Positions 1 to 17,750 of a stretch of 17,750 nt of DNA are shown here, piece after piece (the stretch's first letter is position 1; every line of letters begins with the position of its first letter). A model generated the notes under the pieces. The model ran no database searches, was not told where the DNA came from, and saw only the letters and a list, made by a program, of their open reading frames with translations. The position numbers and the translations under genes were made by a program. Source of the DNA: JBMFOH01 sp049969715 [NCBI: bacterium] (GTDB taxonomy: Bacteria; DUMJ01); assembly GCA_049969715.1 (NCBI GenBank), contig JBMFOH010000033.1, positions 1 through 17,750 of the forward strand, in the 5' to 3' direction.

Positions 1-216
1 TCTCTCAAAAGGCAGTTTACTACTTTCTACAATTATAATTAAATCAAGGTCACTTCCTATGCCAAAGTCTCCTCTAGCATAAGAGCCAAAGAATCCTATC
101 TTTAGCACATCGTTCCTTTTTTCTATTACCTCTTTTATCCATTCTTTGAGTTTGTAGATTACTTCTTCATAAGTTGGCCATTTTAGAACGGACGAATTCA
201 ATGATCTCACTGGCAT
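1..216 (-). CDS. MNT-family minimal nucleotidyltransferase (antitoxin), 3' end outside window
   Basis: Partial gene; 72 N-terminal residues are visible and it runs off the left edge. Residues 44-50 read GSYARGD and are followed by SDLDL with D56 and D58: this is the GS-x(10)-D-x-D nucleotidyltransferase signature with two of the three metal-binding carboxylates. Family knowledge: MNT proteins of MNT/HEPN pairs act as antitoxins, in characterised MntA/HepT systems by adding AMP to the HEPN toxin. The ATG at 216 is chosen because a GGAGG sits 9 bases upstream, inside the HEPN gene; the next downstream ATG in the region (170) is out of frame and stops after three codons. The gene overlaps the end of the HEPN gene by 50 bases, so the two are co-transcribed and probably translationally coupled. 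Whether this pair acts by AMPylation is inference. Confidence 0.85.
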   Translation of the reverse strand, partial: MPVRSLNSSVLKWPTYEEVIYKLKEWIKEVIEKRNDVLKIGFFGSYARGDFGIGSDLDLIIIVESSKLPFER

Positions 217-469
217 ATTTTATAGCCTCCTCACTTTGAATAGATCCATAGTGTTCAAAAGGTATATTCTCCTGTAGCTCTCTTAAGAGCTTAGATATTA
301 TATGTCCCCAGGCTTCTTGCCTTAAATATAAATGTAGCGCCTTAACAGCCTTTTCAGCAGATTGCTGAGAGGCAAAACAAGCCCATTCATATTTACCCAG
401 CTTATGAGAGTCTTTTGCATGTTCAAGATCCCGCATGGCTTGATTTAACCAGTCGTAAGCTCTATTCAT
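167..469 (-). CDS. HEPN-domain protein (putative RNase toxin of MNT/HEPN pair)
   Basis: A 100-residue, all-helical HEPN protein. The first helix resembles the PF05168-type start (AYDWLNQAMRDLEHA) and the second has the typical C-F-A-x-Q-x-x-E-K-A-x-K-A pattern at residues 31-44. R50 and H56 give an R-x5-H, fitting the R-x(4-6)-H ribonuclease motif of HEPN toxins. Family knowledge: such proteins are RNases neutralised by the partner MNT. The ATG at 469 has an AAAGGAG site 9 bases upstream, and a TATAAT box lies about 40 bases upstream. The gene precedes and overlaps the MNT gene, the usual toxin-first order of HepT/MntA modules. Toxin activity is not shown by sequence alone; some HEPN/MNT pairs may have other roles. 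Confidence 0.85.
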   Translation of the reverse strand: MNRAYDWLNQAMRDLEHAKDSHKLGKYEWACFASQQSAEKAVKALHLYLRQEAWGHIISKLLRELQENIPFEHYGSIQSEEAIKYASEIIEFVRSKMANL

Positions 470-792: not shown

Positions 793-1908
793 ATGGAAAG
801 AATTCCTATGTCAGCACCTGATTTGGATGAGAGTGATATCAATGAAGTATTAGAGGTTTTGAACTCTGGACGCCTTGCTTTAGGTCCTAAGGCAAGAGAA
901 TTTGAGGAATTGATGGCAGATTATGTTGGAACAAGATATGCTATTGCAGTAAGCTCTGGTACAGCTGGTCTACATATCCTAGTCAGAGCTTTAGGCATTG
1001 GTCCTGGTGACGAGGTCTTAGTTCCTTCTTTTACATTTTCTGCATCAGTTAATGCAATTTTGTATGAAAGAGCTACACCAGTTTTTGTAGATGTAGAGTC
1101 AGAGACATATAATCTAGATCCAGAGGATTTAGAGAGAAAGATTACAAAAAGAACTAAAGCTGTAATGGCGGTAGATATCTTTGGACATCCAGCAGAGTGG
1201 GACAGGATTTTAAAGGTTGCAGAAAAGTATAATCTAAAAGTTATTGATGATTCCTGTGAGGCTTTAGGAGCAGAATATAAAGGAAAGAAGATTGGGCAAT
1301 TTGGAGATGCTGCTTGTTTTGCCTTTTATCCAAATAAACAGATAACTACAGGGGAAGGTGGAATTATTGTAACAAACAATCCTAGTATTGAAAAACTTGC
1401 AAGGAGCTTAAGGAATCAGGGAAGGGAAGAGATGGGTTCGTGGCTTGAGCATGAAAGATTAGGATATAACTATAGGATGGATGAAATGTCAGCAGCTCTT
1501 GGAGTATCTCAGCTAAAAAAGATAGAGACCTTTTTAGAGAAGAGAGAAAGAGTTGCAAGGATGTATACTGAGAAGTTAAAAGATTCTCCTTGGGTAAGAC
1601 CCCCAGTAGTTAAACCTTATGTAAGGATGAGCTGGTTTGTATATGTGATCACTCTTGAGAAGGGTTTAGATAGGGATAGGGTTATAGAGAAGATGGAAGA
1701 AATGGGTATCCCCGCTAGAGGGTATTTTTCTCCAATACATCTACAGCCGTATATTAGAGAGATGTTTGGAACAAAAGAGGGGATGCTTCCGATTACAGAA
1801 GATATCTCAAAAAGGACCTTAGCATTACCGTTTCATAATAATCTCAAAGTAGAAGAGATTGAAGAGGTAGCCAGAATCCTAAGAGAGGTAATTAAAGCTT
1901 GTTTATAG
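793..1908 (+). CDS. DegT/DnrJ/EryC1/StrS-family sugar aminotransferase
   Basis: A 371-residue PLP enzyme of the family that transfers an amino group, usually from glutamate, to a keto sugar bound to a nucleotide. SSGTAGLH at 54-61 is the PLP-phosphate loop, D152/D153 in IDDSCEALGA contacts the PLP ring nitrogen, and K182 in FYPNKQITTGEGG is the Schiff-base lysine. The length is normal for the family. The ATG at 793 follows a GGAAGG site with a 6-base gap. It is the first gene of the glycan operon and lies just before a UDP-sugar 4,6-dehydratase, whose 4-keto-6-deoxy product is the natural substrate for this family (PglE, WbpE or ArnB-like enzymes). Making a 4-amino-4,6-dideoxyhexose is therefore the likely role. 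Exact sugar and C3 versus C4 specificity cannot be read from the sequence. Confidence 0.92.
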   Translation: MERIPMSAPDLDESDINEVLEVLNSGRLALGPKAREFEELMADYVGTRYAIAVSSGTAGLHILVRALGIGPGDEVLVPSFTFSASVNAILYERATPVFVDVESETYNLDPEDLERKITKRTKAVMAVDIFGHPAEWDRILKVAEKYNLKVIDDSCEALGAEYKGKKIGQFGDAACFAFYPNKQITTGEGGIIVTNNPSIEKLARSLRNQGREEMGSWLEHERLGYNYRMDEMSAALGVSQLKKIETFLEKRERVARMYTEKLKDSPWVRPPVVKPYVRMSWFVYVITLEKGLDRDRVIEKMEEMGIPARGYFSPIHLQPYIREMFGTKEGMLPITEDISKRTLALPFHNNLKVEEIEEVARILREVIKACL

Positions 1909-1971
1909 AACTTATTTTATGATAAACTATTCTTATCTTAAAAAGATTTAGAAGGAGGTCTTTTTTCTGTA

Positions 1972-3786
1972 ATGTATGAGAAATTTATATGGGACCTGGC
2001 AAGCTTTTCTTTGGCTTCTTTTATTTCCTTTCTTATAAGATTTGACTTTCAATTTTTGAGAGTATCTCTTTATTATCCTATAATATTGAGATCTACATTT
2101 TTAGAGAGCCTTCTTGGCTTTATAGCGATTCTTATCTTTAAGCCTTATAAAGATATCTGGTCTTACACTAGTATAAATGAGGTTAAATCAGTATTAATTA
2201 TGATCTTATTAGAGAAGATGTCTTTTGTACTGTTGACCTATATAATAGGAATGGAGAGATTTCCTAGGTCTATCTTTGTAATATCATTTGGCGTCTCTAT
2301 TTTTCTAATACTATTACCGAGGTTTGTTCAGAGATACTTTAGAGAATCCCTCTTTAGAGGTAATAAAGTAGAACCTAAGAATAGAGTTCTTATAGTAGGT
2401 GCAGGGGAGGCTGGAGAAAGGCTGCTTAGAGAGATATATGCACATCCAGAATTGGGTTATAATATAGTTGGCTTTATTGACGATGATGAAAAGAAGATAA
2501 ACAATTACATACATAATATAAGGGTGCTAGGAAAGACTAATAGAATTCCTGAAATTGTTGATAAATATGACGTAGACACAGTTATTGTTTCTATCCCAAG
2601 TGCTTCAAGAAGAGATCTATATAGGATACATACGATTATATCTACAACTAAAGCTAAAGAATTAGTGACTCCAGGACTTTACGAGATTTTAGGAGGAGAT
2701 ATCTCTATATCTACTCTAAGACCTTTTGGTTTACAGGACCTTCTTTTTAGAGAACCCGTAACTATAGATATCAATGATGCAAGGGCTTACTTAGGTGGTA
2801 AGAGAATACTGGTTACTGGCGCCTGTGGTTCTATTGGAAGGGTTATAGCTCAACACTTAGTAAGTTTTGGAGCTGAAGTTATAGGCTTTGATAATAATGA
2901 GACAGGTGTCTTTGACTTAGAGAAGGATTTAAGTAAGATAGGAAAGATTATCCCAGTAGTTGGAGATATAAGATTTAGGGATTCTCTAGATAGAGTAATG
3001 AGTTATTATTCTCCAGAGATAGTATTCCATGCTGCTGCCTATAAACATGTTCCTCTTATGGAAATATATCCAGAGGAGGCAGTGCTTACAAATGTTGTAG
3101 GTACGTTAAATCTAATAGAATCCTGTAAAGGAAATGGAGTAAAACAGATGATTAATATTTCTACTGATAAAGCAGTAGAGCCTAAAAATATGTTAGGAAT
3201 AACTAAGAGATTTACTGAAATTATGACTATTAAAGCAAATGGGGATAGAACCTGTTATTCTACCGTCAGGTTTGGTAATGTATTGGGAAGTAGGGGAAAT
3301 GTTTTAGAGGTATGGAAGAAAGAATTAATTTCTGGACAACCCCTAAGTATAACTAGTCCTCAGATGAAGAGATACTTTATGCTTACTGAAGAGGCTTCTT
3401 TGCTGGTTATAGAGGCAAGCCGAATAGCAAAACCAGGAGATTTATATATACTAGATATGGGAGAACCTATACTTATAGAAGAGTTGGCAAGAATCTTCTG
3501 TAGGCTTCAAGGATTTGAGTTGGGAAGAGATGTTAAGGTTAGGTATATTGGAGTAAGACCTGGAGAAAAGGTAGAAGAAAAGCTTTGGGCAGATGATGAG
3601 AAGGCCTTTAAGACCCAACATCCAAGGATTATTAAAGTTATCTCACCAGTTCCTGACTTTTCTTGGGATGATATTAAGTCTATAGTTAGAGAACTTGAAC
3701 TTTTGGCAAGGAATGGAGATAAAGAAAAGATAAGGAAAGCAGTGAGGGATATAATATATGGGTCACCTAGCGTCATTAGCGAATAG
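1972..3786 (+). CDS. Membrane-anchored nucleotide-sugar 4,6-dehydratase (CapD/WbpM/PglF type)
   Basis: A 604-residue protein of the long dehydratase class. Residues 1-115 carry about four membrane helices. A first Rossmann domain has VGAGEAGE at 142-149, and the catalytic Rossmann domain has the NAD-binding TGACGSIG at 282-289. The active site shows the family pattern TDKAVEPKNMLGITK, with TDK at 398-400 and K412; methionine replaces the usual SDR tyrosine, as in PglF and WbpM. The expected reaction is UDP-GlcNAc to UDP-2-acetamido-4-keto-2,6-dideoxyhexose at the inner face of the membrane. The ATG at 1972 has a perfect AAGGAGGT site but with an unusually long spacing of about 12 bases; no closer in-frame start exists. 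It follows the aminotransferase by 63 bases with no clear terminator, and its 3' end overlaps the next gene by 29 bases. Confidence 0.93.
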   Translation: MYEKFIWDLASFSLASFISFLIRFDFQFLRVSLYYPIILRSTFLESLLGFIAILIFKPYKDIWSYTSINEVKSVLIMILLEKMSFVLLTYIIGMERFPRSIFVISFGVSIFLILLPRFVQRYFRESLFRGNKVEPKNRVLIVGAGEAGERLLREIYAHPELGYNIVGFIDDDEKKINNYIHNIRVLGKTNRIPEIVDKYDVDTVIVSIPSASRRDLYRIHTIISTTKAKELVTPGLYEILGGDISISTLRPFGLQDLLFREPVTIDINDARAYLGGKRILVTGACGSIGRVIAQHLVSFGAEVIGFDNNETGVFDLEKDLSKIGKIIPVVGDIRFRDSLDRVMSYYSPEIVFHAAAYKHVPLMEIYPEEAVLTNVVGTLNLIESCKGNGVKQMINISTDKAVEPKNMLGITKRFTEIMTIKANGDRTCYSTVRFGNVLGSRGNVLEVWKKELISGQPLSITSPQMKRYFMLTEEASLLVIEASRIAKPGDLYILDMGEPILIEELARIFCRLQGFELGRDVKVRYIGVRPGEKVEEKLWADDEKAFKTQHPRIIKVISPVPDFSWDDIKSIVRELELLARNGDKEKIRKAVRDIIYGSPSVISE

Positions 3787-4324
3787 GATATCGCTAGTAA
3801 TGCCTAGTACAAATATCGGTGGAGCAGAAAGAGTGATGACAAATCTGAGTATTGGCTTAAAGGAAAAGGGCTTTAATGTAGACTTGGTGTTGGTAGACAG
3901 CAAGGGACCTTTTCGAGAGCTTATACCTGAAAATATTAATATCGTAGACTTAAATTCGTCTAGAGTTCTTTACAGTTTGCCTAAGTTTGTTCAATATCTA
4001 AAGAAATATAAACCTGATGTTGTAATATCTGCTATGGACCATCAGAATATAGTGACCCTATGGGCTATTCATATTGCAAAAATAAAACCCGTAACTATAG
4101 TCAGTGTGCATAATGATTGGTCGGTCCTATATAATAAAGTTAGATCCCTTAAGGATAAGGGACTTCCACTACTTATGAAAAGATTCTATCCATGGGCAGA
4201 CTATATTGTTGCTGTATCTCAAGGAACTGCTCGTAGCTTATCTCTAATAACTGGTATCCCATTAGATAAGATAAAAGTGATCCATGAAAGATATCTATAT
4301 TACTCTCTTTACCCCAACATATAA
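3758..4324 (+). pseudogene. Truncated GT4 glycosyltransferase, N-terminal domain only
   Basis: 188 residues against 350-400 for a complete GT4 enzyme. The N-terminal Rossmann domain is well preserved: the NIGGAERV acceptor-side motif at 19-26, VSVHNDW at 115-121 and the end of the domain WADYIVAVSQGTARSL at 146-161, running to IKVI (about 172-175). At this point an intact relative continues into the donor-binding C-terminal domain; compare the 400-residue GT4 at 5200, whose corresponding segment reads MVIYNPI. Here the sequence instead reads through the beginning of the next gene in the wrong frame for about 13 residues and stops. The whole C-terminal domain, including the E-x7-E motif, is missing. 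The ATG at 3758 has a GTGAGGG site 9 bases upstream and overlaps the dehydratase gene. The product should lack transferase activity. A 3' deletion joining this gene to the next is the simplest explanation. Confidence 0.75.
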
Positions 4325-5198
4325 CAGGGAAAAATTGTTAAGTAGACTATATGAGAGTATAAAGAGACAAAGTTTTTCAAATTTTGAATGGATTATTGTA
4401 GATGATGGTAGTACTGATAATACAGAGCAAATAGTAGAGTCTTGGCTTAAAGAGAGTACTTTTGATATTCGATACTTTTATCAGCAAAATTCTGGTAAGC
4501 ATATAGCTATTAATAAGGGTGTTAGAGAGGCAAGAGGAGAATTATTTTTTATAATAGATTCTGATGATTGGCTTGGAGATGATTCTTTACAAGATATATG
4601 GCAAACTTGGCAATCTATTCCTGAAAAGCAGAAGCCATATTTTGCAGGTGTTAGTGGTCTATGTGCTTATAGAGATGGTAAAATAGTTGGAACAAAATAC
4701 CCTCTTGATCATTTAGACAGTGACTCTATTGAGATAAGAACCTTTTATGATGTTAAGGGTGATAAATGTGAGGTCTTTAGGACAGAGGTTTTAAAGGAAT
4801 TTCCATTTCCTGATAATTTGGGAAGGTTTGTTACAGAAGGAATTGTATGGAATAGAATAGCTCTGAAATATAAGATGAGATTTGTTAATAGGGTTTGGTG
4901 TTATAAAGAGTATCAAGTAGAAGGGTTAACTAGTAGGAGCATCGAGTTAAGAGTAAAGAATTTAGACTCTATAATCCTTTATTATAAAGAGTTTTGTGAA
5001 ATTAAAGGAAAGAGGATTAAGTTCAGATATCAATTAAAAAATGTTATAAATTACTCTCGCTTCTCCATTCATAGGAGAAGGTTTTTCAGAAATCTCACTA
5101 GCCTAGATAATAAAAGTTTAAGATTCTTATATCTAGTTGTCTTTCCTATTACATTTCTTCTATATTTGCGTGATAAAGTGATAGTAAAAGGGATATAG
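4284..5198 (+). CDS. GT2-family (GT-A fold) glycosyltransferase
   Basis: A 304-residue inverting glycosyltransferase. FTPTYNREKLL at 9-19 begins the nucleotide-binding domain, D40/D41 in VDDGSTDNT bind the nucleotide, GKHIAINKGV lies at 71-80 and the metal-binding DSDD at 92-95. The C-terminal ~25 residues are hydrophobic and basic and may touch the membrane. The start is normal for the family, so the coding region is complete, but its upstream neighbourhood is not original: the first 41 bases overlap the broken GT4 gene and only a weak AGTGA lies before the ATG, so expression may depend on readthrough from that gene. It should add one sugar to the lipid-linked glycan on the cytoplasmic side. 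The sugar is unknown. Confidence 0.88.
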   Translation: MKDIYITLFTPTYNREKLLSRLYESIKRQSFSNFEWIIVDDGSTDNTEQIVESWLKESTFDIRYFYQQNSGKHIAINKGVREARGELFFIIDSDDWLGDDSLQDIWQTWQSIPEKQKPYFAGVSGLCAYRDGKIVGTKYPLDHLDSDSIEIRTFYDVKGDKCEVFRTEVLKEFPFPDNLGRFVTEGIVWNRIALKYKMRFVNRVWCYKEYQVEGLTSRSIELRVKNLDSIILYYKEFCEIKGKRIKFRYQLKNVINYSRFSIHRRRFFRNLTSLDNKSLRFLYLVVFPITFLLYLRDKVIVKGI

Positions 5199-5199
5199 T

Positions 5200-6402
5200 A
5201 TGGCTTTATTCTTTTTAATCAATTCTCTTGCAGGTGGTGGGGCTGAAACAGTCTTAATCAGAATAGCAAAATACCTTAAACCTAAGAAGATATTTTTACT
5301 TGAGAGAGACGTAAAATATCCTATAGAAGAAGAGAATCTAACTACCTTTCTTTCTAGTCATACTAGAAGTGTTAGTCCTGTTTTTAAGAGTTTTTACATT
5401 CCAATATATGCAATTGAGCTTTCTAAAAATATTAGTACTAGTGATATAGTAGTATCTTTTTTAGAAAGAGCAAACTTCGTTAATATAGCAGTTAAATATC
5501 TAAAGGGACACAAAGTTATAATATCTGTACATATAGATCCAATAAGTGGACATAGGGGTATAAGAGGGATAAATAAGATTTTGATAAAAACTCTCTATGC
5601 TAGAGCAGATTATGTAGTTACTGTTTCAGAGGGAGTAGCTTATTCCTTAGAATCTTTAGGAATTCCAAGGAATAAGATGATGGTAATCTATAATCCAATC
5701 TCTCTTAGAGAGATAACACAAAGGTCCGAGGAAGATATAGAAAAAATCTTTAATGATAAGGATTTCTTGATAACGGTAGGAAGACTTACAAAGGCAAAGG
5801 GCCAGTGGCATCTTCTAAGAATTTTTAAAGAAGTTAAAAAGGATTTTCCAGAGTTAAAACTATTACTCTTAGGAGAAGGAGAACTAAAAGACTATCTAGT
5901 TAATCTATCTCTAAAGCTTGGTTTTAAAACTTATGTTTGGGATAGAGATAGAATTTCGCCAGATTATGAAGTCTATTTTATGGGATTTAAGGAAAATCCA
6001 TTTAAATATATTGCAAGAGCTAAGCTTTTTATCTTATCTTCCTTATGGGAAGGATTTCCTAATGTTGTAGTTGAAGCCTTAGCATGTAAAACTACTGTTA
6101 TCGCGTCTGATTGTCGTTCTGGTCCAAGAGAGATTCTAGCTCCAGATACTGAAGTTAGTTATCAAACAAGAATACCAGAATTTACGGAGTTTGGAGTTTT
6201 AATGCCTGTTTTAGAATCATATTTTATAGATCCGGAAGAAGGGTTAACAGGAAGAGAAAGAGTCTGGTTAGATACCATAGTATCATTATTAAAAGATGAG
6301 AATCTAAGAAAGAGTTATCAATCGAAGGCTATAGAGAGGGCTAAGAATTTTGATATAAATAAAATCATAGGGGATTGGTATAGGTTACTTCAGTATGTCT
6401 AG
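5200..6402 (+). CDS. GT4-family glycosyltransferase (GT-B fold)
   Basis: A complete 400-residue retaining glycosyltransferase. NSLAGGGAETV at 8-18 is the N-terminal glycine motif, VGRLTKAKG at 193-201 marks the start of the donor-binding domain, and the E-x7-E motif is E284 to E292 in EGFPNVVVE. ASDCRSGPREIL follows at 302-313, typical of enzymes related to GalNAc-alpha-1,4 transferases such as PglJ/PglH, though that sub-assignment is only a suggestion. The ATG overlaps no gene; it lies one base after the preceding stop, with AAAAGGG as ribosome site. It aligns in general pattern with the truncated GT4 at 3758 and shows what that copy has lost. Confidence 0.9.
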   Translation: MALFFLINSLAGGGAETVLIRIAKYLKPKKIFLLERDVKYPIEEENLTTFLSSHTRSVSPVFKSFYIPIYAIELSKNISTSDIVVSFLERANFVNIAVKYLKGHKVIISVHIDPISGHRGIRGINKILIKTLYARADYVVTVSEGVAYSLESLGIPRNKMMVIYNPISLREITQRSEEDIEKIFNDKDFLITVGRLTKAKGQWHLLRIFKEVKKDFPELKLLLLGEGELKDYLVNLSLKLGFKTYVWDRDRISPDYEVYFMGFKENPFKYIARAKLFILSSLWEGFPNVVVEALACKTTVIASDCRSGPREILAPDTEVSYQTRIPEFTEFGVLMPVLESYFIDPEEGLTGRERVWLDTIVSLLKDENLRKSYQSKAIERAKNFDINKIIGDWYRLLQYV

Positions 6403-7537
6403 AAGACTTAAAATTCTTTTTGTTGCCAATGTGTCACGTGACCTATACAACTTTAGAATAGGTCTTATGAGAACCCTTAAGAGAAGAGGTTTTGAGGTTG
6501 TGTGTATTGCTCCAAAGGATAGCTTCTCAGAGAGATTTATAAAAGAGGGTTTTAGATATGTTTCAGTAGAGTATCTAAAGAGGGAAGAGAAAGGCTTCTT
6601 TAAGAATTTACTACTCATTTGGGAATTATACAAGATCTATAAAAAAGAAAATCCTGTTTTAGTCTTGCACTATACTATAAAACCTAATATCTTTGGGAAT
6701 ATTGCTTCTAAATTATCTAGGGTAAGGTCCTTTTCTATAGTAACAGGCTTAGGTTCTTTCTTTGTTAGAAAGAGCATATTTCAGATACTAATTAGGTTCC
6801 TTTATAAAATTTCATTTAATTTTACAGAAAAGGTCTTTTTCTTAAATAGAGAGGATAGAGAGCTCTTTATTAAAAATGGGATCATCTCTCCTAATAAGGC
6901 AGTACTAATCAATGGAGAAGGTATAGATACAAGTTACTTTTCTCCAGATTTTTGTAGTAGAGTTTCCAAAGAAGAGAAAAACCCGGTTTTTCTATTAACT
7001 GCAAGGCTCCTTTGGGATAAAGGGATAAAAGAATTTGTTGAATCAGCTAGGAAAGTAAAGGAAATATATCCCAAGGCTGAGTTTTGGCTTTTAGGTCCTA
7101 TAGATGAAGCAAATCCTACAGCTATCCCAAGCAAAACTGTAAAAGACTGGGAAGAAAAAGGAATTATTAAATACCTAGGTATAGTTGATGACGTCCGTCC
7201 GCTTATATGTCAGAGTGATGTTGTTGTATTACCATCTTATCGTGAAGGGGTCCCTAGGTCACTACTTGAGGCGATCTCTATGGGAAAACCAATAATTACT
7301 ACAGATACAGCAGGTTGTAGAGAGGTTATTGAGGATGGAAGGAATGGATTTCTTGTCAAGGTTAAAGACGTAGAATCTCTTACTAACGCTATGATTAGAT
7401 TTATAGAGCTTTCTAAAGAGAAAAAACGAGAAATGGGGATGTATAGCAGGGAGAAGGCTATAAGAGAATTTGATGAAAGGATAATTATTGATAAGTATCT
7501 AGAAATTATAAGAGAGGTCTTGGTTATAGATATCTAG
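6395..7537 (+). CDS. GT4-family glycosyltransferase, CapM/PglA-like
   Basis: A 380-residue GT-B enzyme. NVSRDLYNFRIGLMRTLKRRG at the N-terminus, LHYTIKPNIFGNIASKL at 91-107 and VTGLGSFF at 116-123 are hallmarks of the CapM-like subgroup, which includes PglA. The donor domain has ARLLWDKGI at 203-211 and the E-x7-E pair E284/E292 in EGVPRSLLE, then DTAGCREVIEDGRNG. Subgroup members usually add GalNAc or a similar HexNAc to a diphospho-lipid-linked amino sugar, which fits the amino-sugar genes upstream; this donor assignment is inference. The ATG lies 8 bases inside the previous gene, so the two are translationally coupled. It is the last gene of the operon, and its stop codon directly abuts the stop of the convergent gene. 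Confidence 0.9.
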   Translation: MSRRLKILFVANVSRDLYNFRIGLMRTLKRRGFEVVCIAPKDSFSERFIKEGFRYVSVEYLKREEKGFFKNLLLIWELYKIYKKENPVLVLHYTIKPNIFGNIASKLSRVRSFSIVTGLGSFFVRKSIFQILIRFLYKISFNFTEKVFFLNREDRELFIKNGIISPNKAVLINGEGIDTSYFSPDFCSRVSKEEKNPVFLLTARLLWDKGIKEFVESARKVKEIYPKAEFWLLGPIDEANPTAIPSKTVKDWEEKGIIKYLGIVDDVRPLICQSDVVVLPSYREGVPRSLLEAISMGKPIITTDTAGCREVIEDGRNGFLVKVKDVESLTNAMIRFIELSKEKKREMGMYSREKAIREFDERIIIDKYLEIIREVLVIDI

Positions 7538-8797
7538 CTATCTCGCTCCCCATTTTATTAATAAAACCTTGATTGTTTTAAATGCTATTACTAAGTCTAA
7601 CCAGATGGATTGATTTTTTATATAGTATAGGTCATATTCTAGTTTTTCTTTGGTCTCCTCGATTCCTGCTGCATAGCCCTGATGGATCTGAGCCCAACCT
7701 GTAATTCCTGGTTTTACAAGATGTCTTAGATTGTAAAATGGGATTTCTTGAATAAATTCCTCTACAAATTTTTCCTGTTCTGGTCTTGGTCCAATGAGGC
7801 TCATCTCCCCCTTTAACACGTTCCAGAATTGAGGAAGCTCATCCAGACGAAATCTTCTTAATATTTTCCCTATGCGGGTTACCCTTGGGTCATCATTACT
7901 GGCAAATCTTGGCCCATTAGCTTCTGCATTTATGTGCATTGTCCTGAATTTTATTATCTTATAAGTCCTTCCTCCCTCTCCTATCCTTGTCTGTTTAAAT
8001 AGGATCGGTCCTTCGGAGTCTAGCTTTATGAGTATGGCAATTATTATGCTAAGGATTAGGACAAATGGGGAGATTATAATCACTAAGAGGATATCAAAAA
8101 GCCTTTTTAAAAATTTTGTCGCAAGAGATTTATAGTTTCCTTTTATAGATTCTTCGTAGAAGTAACTGATAGGTATCTTACCTAAAACTGTCTCATATAT
8201 CTCAGATATATTATATATAGGTATACCTTTTAGAAGTAAGTTGGTAGTATAACGCGTCCATTCTGGAGGTAGATTGGCTTGTGAGGATACTACTACTCCA
8301 TCTAGAGTGTACAGATTTGATATCTCAGAGGGATTATCTAGGATATACCAATTGATGTTGGGTATATTCAATAATTCATCACTTATGGAGAAAGGAAGTA
8401 ATGCAAGGTTTAGTCTTCTTTTTTTCTCTATAAAGGATGCTATTATTAACCAAGCAAGGTTCAATATGTATGCATATAGAAGAAAACTGCGGGAATAGTA
8501 GAACCTGCCTATAGCGATGATACTAATAATAATTAGATAGAAAAGTGTTATAAATGTAAAGATAATACTATAGTGTTCTATACGAGGGAATCTAATAATC
8601 TTAGGGATAATTAGAGAAGAGATTAGATAGACCATTAGAACTAAGAAGAGCATTGTAAATCCATCTTTTACCGTCCAAAATTTTAATGTATTCCAGCTTA
8701 GATATGATGGGAAGAATAGGATTATAAGGCTTCCTACAATACACCACACCCTATAGAATAAAATATTTACGTATCTAGGTGAGAATTGTGCCCCCAT
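7538..8797 (-). CDS. Polyprenyl glycosylphosphotransferase (initiating sugar-phosphate transferase)
   Basis: About 419 residues with the WbaP/WcaJ/CpsE layout: four or five membrane helices in the first ~125 residues, a small soluble domain to ~210, a hydrophobic re-entrant segment at ~237-257 and the catalytic domain. Signatures are KRLFD, DSEGPILFKQTRIG, KFRTM (283-287), the catalytic Asp-Glu in LDELPQFWNVLKGEMSLIGPRPE (D320, E321) and LVKPGITGWAQ. It transfers a sugar phosphate from a UDP-sugar to undecaprenyl phosphate and starts glycan assembly at the membrane. An upstream ATG at 8818 is also in frame, but only the ATG at 8797 has an AGG-type site in range, and it lies just after a candidate promoter. 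It is downstream of zwf on the same strand and convergent with the glycan operon it presumably serves. Confidence 0.9.
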   Translation of the reverse strand: MGAQFSPRYVNILFYRVWCIVGSLIILFFPSYLSWNTLKFWTVKDGFTMLFLVLMVYLISSLIIPKIIRFPRIEHYSIIFTFITLFYLIIISIIAIGRFYYSRSFLLYAYILNLAWLIIASFIEKKRRLNLALLPFSISDELLNIPNINWYILDNPSEISNLYTLDGVVVSSQANLPPEWTRYTTNLLLKGIPIYNISEIYETVLGKIPISYFYEESIKGNYKSLATKFLKRLFDILLVIIISPFVLILSIIIAILIKLDSEGPILFKQTRIGEGGRTYKIIKFRTMHINAEANGPRFASNDDPRVTRIGKILRRFRLDELPQFWNVLKGEMSLIGPRPEQEKFVEEFIQEIPFYNLRHLVKPGITGWAQIHQGYAAGIEETKEKLEYDLYYIKNQSIWLDLVIAFKTIKVLLIKWGAR

Positions 8798-8808
8798 TTC
8801 AAGACCTA

Positions 8809-8837
8809 AGTATATCATAACTAAAAGGGCGAGACAA
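8809..8837 (-). promoter_or_regulatory. Possible promoter of the glycosylphosphotransferase gene
   Basis: On the minus strand: TTGTCT (8837-8832), a 17-base spacer, TATACT (8814-8809). The start of transcription would fall within a few bases of the ATG at 8797 and give an almost leaderless message, so chance similarity in AT-rich DNA is possible. If real, it would uncouple this gene from the gnd-zwf transcript. Confidence 0.3.
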
Positions 8838-8873: not shown

Positions 8874-10331
8874 TTATAAGAACCTTCTCCCATCTCTAGA
8901 GATGAATCTATCTGCCTCCTCTGGACCACAAGAACCTTCTCTGTAAAGGTGTAGTTGAGGAGCCTCTGGCCCTTCCCATCCTTCTATAATTGCGTCTACA
9001 ATATCCCAGGCTAATTCTATCTCATCATTTCTGGTAAATAAAGATTGGTCTCCGTTTATCACGTCTAGGAGTAGTCTCTCATAGGCATCAGGGAGAAGAT
9101 TATCTCCGAAGGAATTTCTATAGCTAAAGTCCATATCTACAGGCGATATGTCCATATCCATCCCAGGTCTTTTCACATTAAATTGGAGTCTTATACCTTC
9201 ATTTGGTTGAATCCATAGATACAGGATATTTGGGTTTACTCTGGTCCTTATACTGTAGGGAAACATTATATGGGGTACATCTTTAAATCTGATAGCTATA
9301 AATGTAGCCTTCTCTTTTAACTTCTTCCCAGATCTCAGATAGAAAGGAACTCCCTGCCATCTCCAGTTATTAATATAGAGATTCAATAATGCATAGGTGG
9401 CAGTATTAGAATTGACAGAGACTCCTTTTTCTTCTCTGTATCCTATATACTGAGCCCTTACCGTGTAGTTGTATGTTTCATGAGGACTTATCCTTCGAAT
9501 AGCCTTTAGTATCTTTACTTTTTCATCTCTTAATGATTTTTCATCAAAATCAATTGGAGGCTCTATAGCTATTAGGGAGAGGAGTTGAAGCATATGGTTT
9601 TGAAACATATCCCTAATAACTCCAGCCTTATCATAGTATCCTGCTCTTGTCCCAATTCCTTCCTTCTCTGCTACTGTAATCTGGATATTATCTATATAAT
9701 TTCGGTTCCATATAGGCTCAAAGATTGCATTGCTAAATCTAAAGAATAGGATATCCTGTACAGTATCTTTCCCTAGGTAGTGGTCTATTCTATAGATCTG
9801 TTTTTCATCAAAGTATATATGTAATCTTTCATTGAGTAATTTTGCACTACTTAGATTATGTCCGAATGGTTTTTCTATTACTATTCTAGGGAAATTATCT
9901 TCTTTTTTGGTAAACCCTGAAGCTCCAAGGGATTCTATTATCTCCTGATAGAGAATAGGCGGGGTGGCGAGGTAAAAGATATATCGATTCTTAGGAATGT
10001 TATATTTTGTTTCAATCTCGTTTAATAGCTCCTTTAACCTTTTATAGCTCTCTAGGTCATTGTAATCTCCCCTATTATAGATAATCCTATCTGAGATATT
10101 AGGCCAGAGCTTACACTGTGAGGTAGTAATGCGTGAGTAACTCTCTACCCCCTTGAATAATTCTTTTCTAAATTCCTCACTATTGAATTGAGTCCTAGCG
10201 AAACCTATAATGAAGATATCATTAGGAGAAAGAAACCCTTCACAGGTTAAGCTAAATATTGCTGGAACTAGTTTTCTCTTTGCTAGGTCTCCAGATGCTC
10301 CGAATATAACGAGTATTACTTTTTCTGACAT
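8874..10331 (-). CDS. zwf: Glucose-6-phosphate 1-dehydrogenase
   Basis: A full-length 485-residue enzyme that oxidises glucose 6-phosphate to 6-phosphogluconolactone and makes NAD(P)H, the first step of the oxidative pentose phosphate pathway. GASGDLAKRK at 11-20 is the dinucleotide-binding motif, EKPFG at 153-157 is conserved, RIDHYLGK at 181-188 holds the substrate-binding histidine (H184) and lysine (K188), and RDMFQNHMLQ contains the catalytic histidine H246. The start overlaps nothing: there is a single base between the gnd stop and this ATG, and the ribosome site is a weak GAAGAG, so translation is probably coupled to gnd. No 6-phosphogluconolactonase gene is present in the window. Arginine after the glycine motif hints at NADP use but is not decisive. 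Confidence 0.97.
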   Translation of the reverse strand: MSEKVILVIFGASGDLAKRKLVPAIFSLTCEGFLSPNDIFIIGFARTQFNSEEFRKELFKGVESYSRITTSQCKLWPNISDRIIYNRGDYNDLESYKRLKELLNEIETKYNIPKNRYIFYLATPPILYQEIIESLGASGFTKKEDNFPRIVIEKPFGHNLSSAKLLNERLHIYFDEKQIYRIDHYLGKDTVQDILFFRFSNAIFEPIWNRNYIDNIQITVAEKEGIGTRAGYYDKAGVIRDMFQNHMLQLLSLIAIEPPIDFDEKSLRDEKVKILKAIRRISPHETYNYTVRAQYIGYREEKGVSVNSNTATYALLNLYINNWRWQGVPFYLRSGKKLKEKATFIAIRFKDVPHIMFPYSIRTRVNPNILYLWIQPNEGIRLQFNVKRPGMDMDISPVDMDFSYRNSFGDNLLPDAYERLLLDVINGDQSLFTRNDEIELAWDIVDAIIEGWEGPEAPQLHLYREGSCGPEEADRFISRDGRRFL

Positions 10332-10332
10332 A

Positions 10333-11244
10333 TCACTCTTCTCTCTTTATTTTTACCTCATGACCACCAAATTTGTTCCTCATAGCAGCCAATAACTTAC
10401 AGGCGAAACTTTCATCCTGGCGTGAGGCAAATCTTCTCATAAGAGAAATGGCAATAACCGGGGCAGGAATACTTAGGTCTATAGATTCTATTACTGTCCA
10501 TCTTCCCTCTCCAGAATCTACTACGTAATCTTCTATCCCTTCTAGTTCTTGATCTTCAGATAGTGCATCTGCTGTAAGGTCTAACAACCAGGATCTTATT
10601 ACACTTCCATATCTCCAAATCTGAGATATCTTGGCTAGATCTAGATTGAACTCCTTTTTGTTTTTTAGTATCTCAAAGCCTTCTGCCAATGCCTCCATCA
10701 TTCCATATTCTATTCCGTTATGGACCATCTTTACAAAATGTCCTGCACCACTTGGACCTACATATCCCCATCCCTTATTAGGTTCAGGTGCTAATGTTTT
10801 AAATAGAGGGGTTAAAGAATCTACTATTTTCTTTTCTCCTCCAATCATAAGGCTATAACCTTCTTTAAGCCCCCATATACCTCCACTTGTTCCTACATCT
10901 ACAAGATGTAACCCTTTCCCCTTTACAAAGTCTGCCCTTCTCACAGTGTCTTTATAATTGGAATTCCCCCCATCTACAATAATGTCCCCGGGGGACAGGA
11001 TATCTATAAGATTTTTAAGCATCTCTTCTGTTGGGTCTCCTGCAGGTAACATCATCCATACTATTCTTGGCTGAGAGAGTTTAAGTATCTCTTCAAGAGA
11101 ATAGATTCCAATTATACCTTCCCTTTCAATCTCTTTAGTCTTTTGAGCGGTTCTATTGTAGGCAAATACCTGATGCCCTCCATTATGAAGCCTTCTTGCT
11201 ATATTGGCTCCCATTCTTCCTAAACCGACTATTACTACTTGCAT
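10333..11244 (-). CDS. gnd: 6-phosphogluconate dehydrogenase, decarboxylating (short form)
   Basis: 303 residues, the short class of 6-phosphogluconate dehydrogenase (about 300 rather than 470 residues), which converts 6-phosphogluconate to ribulose 5-phosphate and CO2. GLGRMG at 7-12 binds the dinucleotide, DGGNSNYKD at 91-99 and GTSGGIWG at 118-125 bind substrate, and K172 with N176 in KMVHNGIEYGMM are the catalytic group. The AYNRT after the second strand (28-32) resembles NADP-preferring relatives; this is inference. An in-frame GTG at 11253 was passed over because AGAGGTGAT, an excellent match to the anti-Shine-Dalgarno, sits 4-6 bases before the ATG at 11244. First gene of a gnd-zwf operon with its own promoter. 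Confidence 0.94.
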   Translation of the reverse strand: MQVVIVGLGRMGANIARRLHNGGHQVFAYNRTAQKTKEIEREGIIGIYSLEEILKLSQPRIVWMMLPAGDPTEEMLKNLIDILSPGDIIVDGGNSNYKDTVRRADFVKGKGLHLVDVGTSGGIWGLKEGYSLMIGGEKKIVDSLTPLFKTLAPEPNKGWGYVGPSGAGHFVKMVHNGIEYGMMEALAEGFEILKNKKEFNLDLAKISQIWRYGSVIRSWLLDLTADALSEDQELEGIEDYVVDSGEGRWTVIESIDLSIPAPVIAISLMRRFASRQDESFACKLLAAMRNKFGGHEVKIKREE

Positions 11245-11262
11245 TATTATCACCTCTTAGAG

Positions 11263-14052: not shown

Positions 14053-14081
14053 TTGACATCTGTAATTGATCGAGCTATCAT
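14053..14081 (+). promoter_or_regulatory. Promoter of the large secreted protein gene
   Basis: A perfect -35 TTGACA (14053-14058), a 17-base spacer and -10 TATCAT (14076-14081, 5 of 6 bases). Start expected near 14088, giving a leader of about 30 bases. It lies in the 82 bases between galK and the next gene, so that gene can be transcribed independently of galT-galK. Confidence 0.65.
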
Positions 14082-14117: not shown

Positions 14118-17100
14118 ATGAGAAATATAAGAGGAAAAGAGGAAAATAGTTTTAGAAGAAACTATTTTAGGCTCTTTATATTTGTATCTCTTCTCTGTGT
14201 CTTCTCCTTTACAGAAGTAACCAGGGGGGATCCTCAATTAATTAGGTGGGATTTTAATAAAGATTCTGAAGACTGGACTCCTACACATAGCCTTTCTCAA
14301 TTTATAGTTAAAGATGGGATTCTTTATACTGAAGTTGCTGGATTCGATCCGTATATGCATAGTCCTATTCTAGATCTAGATGCTAAGACCCATTATCTAT
14401 TGGAGATTAGAACTGCCGTAGATAAGGGCTCTGAGATGAGCATCTATTGGATTACTGATGAATCTCCTAATTGGGCAGAGGATAAGAAGATGAACTTTAA
14501 GATTATTCCAGACAATGAGTTCCATACATATAGGGTAGATATAGGTGTGCATAAGAAGTGGTTAGGAAAGATTAGACAATTTAGGTTGGACTTAGAACCA
14601 CCAGATACTAATGGAGCTCATATAAGGATAGATTATGTACAACTTGGGATATCATCTTCTAAGGTGGAGGTATATAGTATGAATATCGGAACAGGCGTTC
14701 CTAGGCCAGGAAAATCATTCCCTCTATATGTAACTATTAAAAATCCAAGCGGTGAAGTCTTTAAAGATGTCTCTTTAAAAGTAAAAGTACTAGATAAAAT
14801 CTTTTCTGAGTTGGTAAAGGAGATTCAATCTCGAGATACAAAGACTCTTAGTTTTAATGTTAAATTCGATAAGGAAGGTGTTTATAAGATCCCAATTGAG
14901 GTAACCTCTGAAAGTAAGGTTATAGATAAAGGGGATATAAATATCCTAGTAACACGGGATAATCTTTTTGAACAATCTCCTAAGGATATAACATTAGAGA
15001 ACAGTAAGATATTTATACGATTTGCTAGGGTTCCATTTGGTTTTACAACCGCCCTAATCTATGGGAAGAAAGATAATAAATTAGAATTACTTTCAGTTAT
15101 ACATCCTCTTTCTTCGATTACCTATACTGAGCCTGAAGGAAATAGGGTAACAGATATCCTGTGCCCTTCAACAGTAAGGAAGGAAGGCAATAAAGTAGTG
15201 TTTGAAGGGGAGAACAACTTATATAGGTATAAGATAACTATTGAAAAGACAAAAGACGACGAAATAATCAATACCGATTACGAATTGGGTGCAAAAGGAG
15301 ATATAAGGCTTATAAGATTTGATGGTCCATTTCTCCGTGTAGGAGAAGGCTCTTTTGGAGCTAAGAAAATATCTGCATTATTCCCTGGGTTAGAATGGTT
15401 AGTAGGGGAAGAAAGGTCATCTAGTACATTAGATGCTATGGAGCCTTTTAATATGAGGCTTGTCCCTAATCCTCATAAAATAACCGTCCCCTGTATGGGG
15501 ATAGAGTCTAATAACTATCTCATAGGGTTATTATGGAAAGGGGAAGACAACCAGCCTGCTAGTATTTTTTGTTCACCTAATTGGTATGAAAATCAAGAGA
15601 ATCATCTACTGGGGTTATTTTTTCCCTATGTTCCAAATTATGTAAAGGAGAATAAGACATATGCTGATGTTCCATATGTTCTTAGACCAGGAGATAAGAT
15701 AAGTATAGGATCAAAAATACTTATAAGCTATAACAGAACTATTTTAGACCTGGTCCCAAAATGGCTTAGTTTATATGGTTCTTTAGATGTGAAATTCCCT
15801 CGTTCTCTTGAAGAAGAGATAAGATTATGTGAAGAAGGTTATAAAGGTATATGGGAGCCAAATGCTCCTGGATGGCCTCATGCTATCCCTGGTAATTGGA
15901 CTCCATCACCATATCCAAAAGATGCCTTTCTTCTTTATATAGGTAGTATTTTTACAAAAGATAAAGAAGCAAAAAGGATGGCTGATACTGTAATAAATCT
16001 TCTTATAAAGGAGCCTTATAAACTTTCTGATCCTGGAGGGAGCCATATATATGAGTTTCAATTGCCATTTATAATAGGTAGATTACCACAATCGTTAGGG
16101 GCATTTAAAGATTTTGTCTCGACATATCTTTCATCACAGAAGCCTGATGGAAGCTTTGTATATTCGTCTAGTATGTCTATGCAAGAGAAGAGATTAGGAG
16201 AAGAAGGAGAAACGAATGTTGGTCTTTGTGCTGTGCCAGCGTCAGTAATCCTCCGATACGCCAGAGTTACTGGAGATGATACCTTCCTAAAGGCAGGACT
16301 AATGGCGTTAGAATTTATGAAAAATTTTAGAGTTCCTAGAGGGGCTCAAGTATGGGAAGTCCCTGTCCATACACCAGATATATTGGCATCTGCACGAGCA
16401 GTTGATGCCTACCTTGAGGGTTATATAATAACAGGTAACAGTGAATATTTAGATAAAGCTGTGTATTGGGCTGAGACAGGATTACCATTTGTCTATTTAT
16501 GGGGTAGAAGTGATAGACCTGTAATGAAATATTCCACTATTCCAGTATTTGGAGCTACGTTCTTCAATTATCCTTGGTTTGGATATCCTGTACAATGGAA
16601 TGGACTTGTCTATGCTTATGAACTATTGAGGCTAGCTAGGTATGATAATAGTTTTCCTTGGAAAGATATAGCTACCGGAATCTTAGCCAGTGGTATGTAT
16701 CAGCAGATGACAAGTGGTGAGTATAAAGGTCTATATCCTGATTCTTGGGATCTAGAGAATAATCTCCCTAGAGGTCCATATATAAATCCTGAAGATCTAT
16801 TAAAGCCTTTATATCTACTAATGGGAATAAAATCAGACCTAGATACTAAGGTTATTAATTTTAGAGAGAACAATGTACATATTACAACTGTTGCCAGGAT
16901 AAAGGATATTAATGCTACAGATAGATGTATAGAGGTTACTATAGATAATATCTCTATCAAAGAAAAATATCTGTTAATAACAAAAGTTGATAGACCTAAG
17001 TCTATCCTTCTAGATGGCAAAGAGATAAAAGAGCTATTAGAATTAGAGGTTCAGCCTATTGGATATAAATATTATAAAGACTACAAGTGGTTAGTAGTAA

Positions 17101-17144
17101 AAGTAGACGGGGGTTCGATGATTAGGTTAGCTATTAACTTCTAA
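14118..17144 (+). CDS. Large secreted modular protein, predicted glycoside hydrolase or lyase of unassigned family
   Basis: 1008 residues. Residues 1-37 are a signal peptide: basic start, hydrophobic LFIFVSLLCVFSF, cleavage plausible after TRG. Residues 40-180 look like a jelly-roll carbohydrate-binding domain (WDFNKDSEDW near the start, IRIDYVQLG at the end). Residues 183-280 form an Ig/CARDB-like sandwich. Residues 290-545 are a large beta-rich domain; 560-905 are helical with spaced G-x-F/E-x-A repeats and Trp/Tyr-rich loops (EPNAPGWPHAIPGNWTP at 580-596, QVWEVPVHTPDILASARAVDAY at 744-765), as in (alpha/alpha)6-toroid glycosidases; 915-1008 return to beta. The start codon lacks a good ribosome site (GGTAGAAG). 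I do not recognise a named family and cannot assign catalytic residues. The place next to galT-galK suggests action on a galactose-containing glycan. An epimerase or a non-catalytic surface protein remains possible. Confidence 0.75.
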   Translation: MRNIRGKEENSFRRNYFRLFIFVSLLCVFSFTEVTRGDPQLIRWDFNKDSEDWTPTHSLSQFIVKDGILYTEVAGFDPYMHSPILDLDAKTHYLLEIRTAVDKGSEMSIYWITDESPNWAEDKKMNFKIIPDNEFHTYRVDIGVHKKWLGKIRQFRLDLEPPDTNGAHIRIDYVQLGISSSKVEVYSMNIGTGVPRPGKSFPLYVTIKNPSGEVFKDVSLKVKVLDKIFSELVKEIQSRDTKTLSFNVKFDKEGVYKIPIEVTSESKVIDKGDINILVTRDNLFEQSPKDITLENSKIFIRFARVPFGFTTALIYGKKDNKLELLSVIHPLSSITYTEPEGNRVTDILCPSTVRKEGNKVVFEGENNLYRYKITIEKTKDDEIINTDYELGAKGDIRLIRFDGPFLRVGEGSFGAKKISALFPGLEWLVGEERSSSTLDAMEPFNMRLVPNPHKITVPCMGIESNNYLIGLLWKGEDNQPASIFCSPNWYENQENHLLGLFFPYVPNYVKENKTYADVPYVLRPGDKISIGSKILISYNRTILDLVPKWLSLYGSLDVKFPRSLEEEIRLCEEGYKGIWEPNAPGWPHAIPGNWTPSPYPKDAFLLYIGSIFTKDKEAKRMADTVINLLIKEPYKLSDPGGSHIYEFQLPFIIGRLPQSLGAFKDFVSTYLSSQKPDGSFVYSSSMSMQEKRLGEEGETNVGLCAVPASVILRYARVTGDDTFLKAGLMALEFMKNFRVPRGAQVWEVPVHTPDILASARAVDAYLEGYIITGNSEYLDKAVYWAETGLPFVYLWGRSDRPVMKYSTIPVFGATFFNYPWFGYPVQWNGLVYAYELLRLARYDNSFPWKDIATGILASGMYQQMTSGEYKGLYPDSWDLENNLPRGPYINPEDLLKPLYLLMGIKSDLDTKVINFRENNVHITTVARIKDINATDRCIEVTIDNISIKEKYLLITKVDRPKSILLDGKEIKELLELEVQPIGYKYYKDYKWLVVKVDGGSMIRLAINF

Positions 17145-17390: not shown

Positions 17391-17750
17391 CTAAGCTGCT
17401 TTTTGCGCCAAACTAGCTAGTTTCCCAACTATGTTAGGTCTAGAAAAGTCTATCCAGGCATCTAGATGGATGTTTATACATATAAAAGCTATCCTCCATA
17501 TCCATTGCTTTCTACTATAGACCCTAGCGGACTCTAACTTATAGTCTATTAATATACGCTTCATGCATCTTTCTGCCGAAGACCGATACTTACTATAGAT
17601 ATCCTCCCATAACTTAGACTCTTTAGCTATCCCAACCCCATCTAGCTGAAGGATCGGAGAAACGTCTCTTACATCTACGATGTCTGATACCTTTTTTAGA
17701 ACACTCACAGGTCTTTTTGCCATAGGGATTAGAGGGAGATTCAACTGGCG
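17391..17750 (-). mobile_element. C-terminal part of a DDE transposase, 5' end outside window
   Basis: 119 C-terminal residues are visible and the frame is open to the right edge, so the gene starts beyond 17750; the TTG/ATG codons near the edge are internal. The segment YRSSAERCMKRILIDYKLESARV followed by RKQWIWRIAFICINIHLDAW fits the C-terminal end of IS4-type transposases, where R-x3-E carries the third catalytic acid and the rest is a helix after the RNase H fold. A family name cannot be assigned safely. The element end should lie in 17150-17390, but the terminal inverted repeat cannot be recognised without the other end. Confidence 0.6.

What the first reader, a model, noticed from the sequence alone, without database searches (positions are those of the whole stretch)
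14118..17144. Unclassified 1008-residue secreted modular carbohydrate-active protein
The order signal peptide, carbohydrate-binding-like jelly roll, Ig-like domain, large beta-sandwich, helical toroid, C-terminal beta domain is the plan of many glycosidases and polysaccharide lyases, yet I cannot match it to a named family. With galT-galK immediately upstream and a near-consensus promoter, it is the best candidate in the window for an undescribed enzyme, perhaps one that frees galactose or uronic acids outside the cell.
Basis: partly seen in the sequence, partly recalled or inferred. Interest (0 to 1): 0.6.

Follow-up and report, generated by a model that had tools for sequence, protein, structure and literature searches.

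The report
Unnamed secreted toroid sugar-enzyme family
The gene encodes a probably secreted multi-domain protein from a large, unnamed bacterial protein family that has the build and conserved acids of an enzyme that cuts sugar polymers; its real substrate is unknown.

Summary
ORF 14118-17144 (+) encodes 1008 residues: hydrophobic N-terminus, CBM-like jelly roll, Ig-like domain, large beta-sandwich, helical toroid, C-terminal beta domain. It is not an orphan: one genome scan gave 53 loci with relatives, and a profile finds the family in 112 of 291 genomes of an Armatimonadota phylum set and 11 of 199 of a Planctomycetota set. No Pfam or NCBIfam model and no PDB sequence names the core. Conservation sits in toroid and sandwich. 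E747 and D875 are identical in 76 of 76 sequences; R447 and D754 in 75. The toroid resembles GH88, AGE and GH76 enzymes, the sandwich a GH36 enzyme, and PL27 spans both. Best reading: a secreted glycoside hydrolase, less likely a lyase, of a family without a name in the libraries at hand. The galactose idea is not supported: galT was not found among ORFs of 101 loci. CAZy/dbCAN could not be searched, so a CAZy number may exist. Export, substrate, mechanism and catalytic pair are inferred.

The parts
14053..14081 (+). sigma-70-like promoter candidate TTGACA-17-TATCAT in the galK-ORF gap
   Evidence: 11/12 match; 1 of 4000 shuffles of the 82-bp gap reaches this. No experimental evidence.
14118..17144 (+). 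the whole gene, 1008 residues and stop
   Evidence: relatives in 53 loci
14118..14228 (+). N-terminal export signal, residues about 1-37 (boundary guessed)
   Evidence: strongest hydrophobic 12-mer of the protein at residue 19; charged residues before it; no A-x-A site by eye; no predictor run
14241..14642 (+). jelly-roll domain, residues 42-175, CBM-like
   Evidence: model pLDDT 91.7; VIA Z 12-13 to CBM29, CBM28 and CBM22 structures, Z 15.2 to the phage R4C baseplate chain 8gtc_M; profile match to the same chain E 3e-10. Non-sugar jelly rolls score in the same range.
14670..14987 (+). Ig-like domain, residues 185-290
   Evidence: model; CARDB E 0.019, below cut-off, here; NPCBM_assoc in 24 of 32 and CARDB in 16 of 32 relatives at E up to 0.1
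14988..15740 (+). large beta-sandwich, residues 291-541
   Evidence: model; alignment to GH36 galactosaminidase 8x1b, 226 residues, rmsd 2.7, Z 20.6, first and last aligned model residues 107 and 612
15384..15491 (+). conserved sandwich loop, residues 423-458 with E426, E432, S434, S435, D439, R447
   Evidence: 13 of the sandwich's 19 positions conserved at 95% or more lie here (list); S434 76, R447 75, E426 72 and E432 71 of 76
15807..16820 (+). (alpha/alpha) helical toroid, residues about 564-901
   Evidence: model; VIA Z 22.0 to unsaturated glucuronyl hydrolase 1vd5 (322 residues, rmsd 4.2), Z about 21 to cellobiose 2-epimerases, 19-20 to GH76
16335..16379 (+). most conserved loop, residues 740-754, family consensus PRAAQVWEVPVHTPD
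   Evidence: consensus; W746 and E747 identical in 76 of 76; model pLDDT under 50 at residues 743-751
16740..16742 (+). D875, second acid that never varies
   Evidence: 76 of 76
16830..17141 (+). C-terminal beta domain, residues about 905-1008
   Evidence: model; 1 of 104 positions conserved at 95%

Best explanation
This is an exported carbohydrate-active enzyme of a large unnamed family, most likely a glycoside hydrolase. The jelly roll would hold it to a glycan, the Ig-like domain is a spacer, and the beta-sandwich sits against an (alpha/alpha) toroid. The substrate would lie in the toroid cleft, lined by aromatic residues such as W746, W784, W820, W827 and Y793 and closed by the conserved sandwich loop (E426, E432, S434, S435, D439, R447). 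Catalysis would use two carboxylates on separate toroid loops, most likely E747 and D875, with D754 and Q826 assisting. An inverting mechanism is favoured only by analogy with other two-carboxylate toroid hydrolases (recalled). Shown: gene, domain order, folds, family spread, conservation. Inferred: export, glycan cutting, cleft lining, catalytic pair, stereochemistry. The substrate is unknown; galactans are not favoured over any other glycan.
For: Confident fold whose toroid matches GH88, AGE and GH76 enzymes and whose sandwich-toroid order matches PL27 5no8 over 480 residues. Foldseek also lists cellobiose and chitobiose phosphorylases, GH127, GH116 and an alpha-L-rhamnosidase. CBM-like first domain. 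Conservation concentrates in toroid and sandwich (57 of 363 and 19 of 251 positions at 95% or more; C-terminal domain 1 of 104; Ig 0 of 106, or 2 of 106 when gaps are ignored), and 33 of 56 conserved positions of the helical ring fall in loops assigned to one face. E747 and D875 identical in 76 of 76. Some relatives sit beside carbohydrate genes: heparinase II/III-like (L011), SASA esterase (L023), GH127 and a GH20b domain (L038), Melibiase with NPCBM (L020). The family is common in the Armatimonadota set.
Against: No sequence relative with a known activity was found. Neighbours of relatives do not converge: among 65 scanned, no Pfam family occurs in more than 2, and many of the 28 scanned singly have no Pfam match or no link to sugars. 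The loop holding E747 is the least confident part of the model (pLDDT under 50 at 743-751), so the distance E747-D875 is unknown. The top Foldseek alignments over the whole model have TM-scores of about 0.2-0.3 and rmsd above 20, so they show shared domains, not a shared whole, and complement/TEP proteins appear among them. The face loops were picked by hand. R447 and H751 are also nearly invariant, which a lyase would want too.
Confidence: 0.52

Rival explanations
1. A polysaccharide lyase of the PL27 or heparinase-like build: beta-elimination at a uronic acid in the same cleft, with R447 neutralising the carboxylate and H751 or Y793 as base.
For: [quoted passage not shown] R447 75, Y793 73 and H751 72 of 76. 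A heparinase II/III-like gene follows one relative (L011).
Against: The charged residues that never vary are two acids, not the basic/tyrosine set usual for lyases (recalled); H751 is replaced in 4 of 76 and R741 in 6 of 76. rmsd 7.8 shows a shared plan, not a close match.
Confidence: 0.22
2. A sugar epimerase, isomerase or phosphorylase that uses the toroid (AGE- or GH94-like).
For: AGE-type enzymes score Z about 20-21.5; cellobiose, chitobiose and cellobionic acid phosphorylases fill many top Foldseek rows.
Against: Only one conserved histidine in the toroid at 60% or more (H751), whereas AGE enzymes use a histidine pair (recalled); export, if real, would leave it without the cytosolic partners of phosphorolysis.
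Confidence: 0.08
3. A non-catalytic scaffold or adhesion protein with a degenerate enzyme fold.
For: No activity known in the family; the jelly roll is shared with a phage baseplate protein and weakly with a PHROG tail-protein family (E 0.078).
Against: Very strong conservation of acids and aromatics in the toroid across distant members.
Confidence: 0.1
4. An already numbered CAZy family that simply has no Pfam or NCBIfam model. This does not compete with the mechanism above, only with its novelty.
For: CAZy/dbCAN is not among the libraries here; the family is large enough (112 of 291 genomes) to have been noticed.
Against: No paper in the held library contains the motif strings searched; Pfam with models to 2025 and NCBIfam of June 2026 have no match above a cut-off to the core.
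Confidence: 0.35

Closest known systems
PL27 L-rhamnose-alpha-1,4-D-glucuronate lyase (BACCELL_00875, 5no8)
   Same: beta-sandwich followed by (alpha/alpha) toroid; 480 residues align, Z 19.2
   Different: rmsd 7.8 and 12% identity; no profile match among PDB sequences; here also jelly roll, Ig and C-terminal beta domain
unsaturated glucuronyl hydrolase (1vd5, 3wiw, 2zzr; GH88, family number recalled)
   Same: toroid fold, Z 21.6-22.0, 312-335 residues, rmsd 4.1-4.3
   Different: matches the toroid only; no PF07470 match in this protein or in the relatives scanned; 9-12% identity
GH36 FpGalactosaminidase (8x1b)
   Same: beta-sandwich, 226 residues, rmsd 2.7, Z 20.6; NPCBM_assoc (NEW3) Ig domain in 24 of 32 relatives
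   Different: FpGalNase has a central GH36 domain between N- and C-domains (PMC11762096, part 1 of 2 of the text); here the next domain is a helical toroid
GH127 beta-L-arabinofuranosidase
   Same: toroid; weak Pfam matches in 3 of 32 relatives, best E 0.0067; Foldseek rows 41 and 49
   Different: no match above cut-off; profile-profile probability 19% over 124 columns; no invariant cysteine
phage R4C Megatron protein (8gtc_M) and CBM29/CBM22-type modules
   Same: jelly roll; sequence profile E 3e-10; Z 15.2, 145 residues, rmsd 2.7, 19% identity
   Different: a baseplate protein, not an enzyme; no CBM family model was matched

Membership tests
GH127 (PF07944) | match above Pfam cut-off (24.9 bits) | tested here: not met
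   no match for this protein at E up to 1; 3 of 32 relatives at E up to 0.1, best E 0.0067, the one shown 14.6 bits
GH127 (PF07944) | catalytic cysteine with zinc-site cysteines (recalled) | tested here: not met
   no cysteine conserved at 95%; the best is C704, 63% of 43 rows
GH88 (PF07470) | match to the GH88 model | tested here: not met
   this protein, E up to 1; 0 of 32 relatives, E up to 0.1; 0 of 9
GH88 (PF07470) | toroid fold | tested here: met
   1vd5 Z 22.0, 322 residues, rmsd 4.2
GH88 (PF07470) | two catalytic aspartates at equivalent places (recalled) | not testable with these tools
   no coordinates or residue-level structural alignment returned
[quoted passage not shown]
   5no8 row; definition from PMC8377490 passages. 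Six full helix pairs were not proven: part of the ring is modelled with low confidence.
PL27 | sequence relation to PL27 | tested here: inconclusive
   profile A2 finds no PL27 chain among PDB sequences at E up to 10; no PL27 model was available
PL27 | rhamnose-glucuronate lyase activity | not testable with these tools
   needs an assay
GH36 | GH36 catalytic domain after the beta-sandwich | tested here: not met
   the sandwich is followed by the helices of a toroid; no Melibiase match at E up to 1
GH36 | N-terminal large beta-sandwich | tested here: met
   8x1b, rmsd 2.7 over 226 residues
AGE epimerases | catalytic histidine pair in the toroid (recalled) | tested here: not met
   H751 is the only toroid histidine conserved in 60% or more of 43 rows
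any CAZy family | match to a CAZy/dbCAN model | not tested
   library not available
secreted protein | signal peptide | tested here: inconclusive
   hydrophobic stretch from residue 19; no A-x-A by eye; no predictor

The most novel reading that the evidence does not exclude
A CAZyme family new to classification, common in Armatimonadota and present in other phyla, with a catalytic site shared between a GH36-like sandwich loop (E426, E432, S434, R447) and a toroid (PRAAQVWEVPVHTPD loop with E747; D875), acting on a glycan that no known toroid family cuts.
Probability: 0.4. Interest if true: 0.62.

Novelty: new variant of a known kind. Interest (0 to 1): 0.45.

Why it matters
At least one member was found in 112 of 291 genomes of the Armatimonadota phylum set (only the best three candidates of each genome were scored), and two of ten carrier genomes hold matches on four contigs, yet no library used here names the family. 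If it is a glycan-cutting enzyme, part of the polysaccharide capacity of these little-cultured bacteria is missing from annotations. The invariant motif gives an easy search handle and two obvious mutants, so function is directly testable.

Tried and rejected
Galactose release: galT had no match at E 1e-8 and galK two distant ones among ORFs of 101 loci, so the neighbouring Leloir genes are not a family trait; many of these loci are short and some overlap. Orphan or spurious ORF: rejected. GH127 membership: weak Pfam matches and 19% profile-profile probability; a first try used wrong reading frames in several loci and was discarded. GH88 genes were also sought in 8 carrier genomes to build a comparison, and none was found. 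A profile-profile hit between A2 and the jelly-roll profile (97.8%) was traced to rows such as L024 and L028 that carry their own jelly roll before the Ig domain. Substrate from neighbours: 28 scanned singly and 65 in aggregate give no common partner. Viral origin: no relative in viral contigs with the single protein or with A2, none in phage records; matches to predicted viral structures are poor (best TM-scores 0.2-0.3 over long alignments). Plasmids: only the jelly roll, in one Natrinema plasmid, from P0001 and from L016; none from L085. The combined alignment A1 put Ig segments on the jelly roll and was not used for folding. Families not listed are not excluded by it. Taxon of the window: no genome held; the best zwf match in 291 Armatimonadota-set genomes is 52% identical, so it stays unresolved. 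Literature: eight searches, of which some were aimed at PL27 and FpGalNase; their listings show no paper that describes the family. The library lacks most subscription papers. Papers seen beyond listings: PMC8377490 (passages) and PMC11762096 (part 1 of 2).

Rows dropped before counts: A2 holds 42 of the 51 core pieces (nine shorter pieces left out) plus the window; A3 holds 32 of the 43 full-length frames; A4 holds 46 of the 47 jelly-roll pieces plus the window. The Ig count treats gaps as changes although many rows begin inside the Ig domain; with gaps ignored it is 2 of 106.
Full report
WHAT IS THERE. ORF 14118-17144 on the + strand encodes 1008 residues. There is no other ATG/GTG/TTG in its frame within the first 60 codons, and the strongest hydrophobic 12-mer of the protein begins at residue 19, so export is likely, though no signal-peptide program was run and I see no A-x-A site. 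The gene follows galT-galK with an 82-bp gap that holds an 11/12 promoter-like site at 14053-14081; 1 of 4000 shuffles of the gap does as well. Base composition of the stretch (0.36-0.37 G+C) lies within that of the rest of the window (0.32-0.39).

IS IT KNOWN BY SEQUENCE. Pfam gives only CARDB at E 0.019, below its cut-off; NCBIfam nothing at E 0.01; PHROGs a tail-protein family at E 0.078 on the jelly roll; PDB sequences nothing better than E 0.29. With the toroid part (residues 640-845) as bait, one scan of genome contigs gave 53 loci that encode relatives; the record titles name Armatimonadota, Zipacnadia, Planctomycetota, Kiritimatiellota, Hydrogenedentota, Verrucomicrobia, Victivallales and Hinthialibacteria, and some only 'bacterium'. 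Of 56 ORFs found there, 45 are closed at both ends, and 35 of these are 1290-1500 residues from stop to stop. A profile of 43 core sequences (A2) finds no solved structure by sequence (best E 0.82, a designed protein). 32 full-length relatives (A3) match mainly Ig-type families (NPCBM_assoc 24, CARDB 16, DUF11 6 of 32), and GH127 weakly (3 of 32); six other families match one or two members each. In NCBIfam three unrelated families match one member each (E 0.00047-0.0086). Nine further divergent members give nothing above cut-off on the core; L087 reaches CARDB at its cut-off.

HOW WIDE IS THE FAMILY. The profile matches 112 of 291 genomes of the phylum of G002 (genome of L011, Armatimonadota by title) and 11 of 199 genomes of the phylum of G003 (genome of L028, Planctomycetota by title; drawn evenly from a larger group). 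Both sets include carriers known beforehand, and only the best three or four candidates per genome were scored, so these are lower bounds. Ten genomes chosen because they carry it all matched, on one to four contigs each. No relative turned up in viral contigs or phages, and in plasmids only the jelly roll in one Natrinema record.

ARCHITECTURE AND ITS EVOLUTION. In most of the 53 first relatives the jelly roll stands behind the core; here it stands before it. That is not unique. Among 76 core rows, the window protein and 9 others have one jelly roll before the core and none found behind; 4 more have one or two before the core (L024, L028, L034, L038), three of them also one behind; 53 have it only behind; in 9 none was found, some of them cut short. 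L099 (1029 residues) has the window's order and aligns collinearly over residues 30-1008 at 29% identity. A subfamily of about 900-990 residues (L084, L085, L086, L095, L096, L100, L101) has jelly roll plus core, and its profile match begins after the Ig region. The window protein is a long lone branch outside the big clade with the jelly roll behind (quick tree, SH-aLRT only; the tree program also flags its letter make-up). That the N-terminal order is older is my inference.

FOLD. The core model (residues 185-1008) is confident: mean pLDDT 90.7, pTM 0.91. In the second look at Foldseek's matches the toroid aligns best with unsaturated glucuronyl hydrolase (1vd5, Z 22.0, 322 residues, rmsd 4.2), cellobiose 2-epimerases (Z about 21) and GH76 (Z 19-20); the sandwich with GH36 FpGalNase 8x1b (Z 20.6, 226 residues, rmsd 2.7; first and last aligned model residues 107 and 612); PL27 5no8 spans both (480 residues, rmsd 7.8, Z 19.2). 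Rows within 1 Z unit are tied. Foldseek itself puts a cycloalternan-forming enzyme, cellobiose and chitobiose phosphorylases and also TEP/complement proteins near the top, with TM-scores of about 0.2-0.3 over the whole model; GH127 and GH116 enzymes follow. The labels GH88, GH94, AGE and GH78 are recalled. The jelly-roll model (pLDDT 91.7) matches CBM29, CBM28 and CBM22 modules at Z 12-13 and, best, the baseplate chain 8gtc_M of phage R4C (Z 15.2), which the profile also finds by sequence (E 3e-10). Against a sugar-binding reading: a complex I assembly intermediate scores Z 13.3 and meprin 12.0, and the first Foldseek row is an Eph receptor domain.

ACTIVE SITE. At 95% identity or more in 43 sequences, 57 of 363 toroid positions, 19 of 251 sandwich positions and 1 of 104 C-terminal positions are conserved; the Ig has 0 of 106, or 2 of 106 with gaps ignored. 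Of 56 such positions within the helical ring, 33 lie in loops that I assigned by hand to one face, which make up 130 of 328 positions (hypergeometric p 0.001, rough because of that choice). Over 76 sequences that include the divergent subfamilies, S434, W746, E747, W784, W820 and D875 never vary, nor do eight proline, glycine or phenylalanine positions; S435, R447, D754, Q826, W827 and a few others vary in one; E426, H751 and E432 in four or five. The sandwich loop 423-458 carries 13 of the sandwich's 19 conserved positions. I read this as an active site built mostly by the toroid and closed by a sandwich loop. The stretch 743-751, within the most conserved loop, is also where the model is least confident, so geometry cannot be claimed.

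FUNCTION. I favour a glycoside hydrolase because the only charged residues that never vary are two acids on separate toroid loops; a lyase remains open (R447, H751, Y793; the PL27 plan). Neighbours of relatives do not name a substrate: 28 scanned singly include a heparinase II/III-like protein, a SASA esterase, GH127, Melibiase with NPCBM and a GH20b domain, but also CstA, a clostripain-type peptidase, DXP reductoisomerase, MutL and others, and many without a match; of 65 in aggregate no family occurs more than twice. galT was not found near relatives.

NOVELTY. Fold and plan are known; the sequence family is unnamed in the libraries used here. CAZy itself could not be searched, and I put 0.35 on it already having a number. 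Eight literature searches, one of them for the motif strings themselves (0 papers), showed no description in their listings.

Noticed in passing
window 1-469 (-): HEPN protein (within 167-469, PF05168 E 1.1e-21) next to a nucleotidyltransferase (1-216, cut by the window edge, PF01909 E 2.4e-10), the layout of a HEPN-MNT pair (that this is a toxin-antitoxin layout is recalled).
   Followed up: partly
window 793-7537 (+) and 7538-8818 (-): Surface glycan cluster: PseC-like aminotransferase, PseB/FnlA-like dehydratase, four glycosyltransferase-like ORFs and an exopolysaccharide sugar-phosphate transferase above its cut-off.
   Followed up: no
window 3758-4324 (+): 188-residue ORF that matches only the N-terminal Glyco_transf_4 domain and overlaps the next ORF: perhaps a short or broken GT4 gene.
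   Followed up: no
window 8874-11253 (-): zwf and a 306-residue gnd-related gene (above the gnd_rel cut-off) side by side, opposite to the flanking galT-galK side.
   Followed up: no
window 17391-17750 (-): 119-residue ORF cut by the window end, without Pfam match; by eye it resembles the end of a transposase.
   Followed up: partly
P0001 residues 42-175 and 8gtc_M: The jelly roll's nearest solved relative by sequence and by structure is a phage baseplate protein, and the only PHROG trace is a tail protein: a domain shared between bacterial proteins and phage tails.
   Followed up: partly
L069 and L021: The family gene is split in two ORFs (L069 from G190, one TGA inside, two ORFs; L021 two ORFs).
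   Followed up: no
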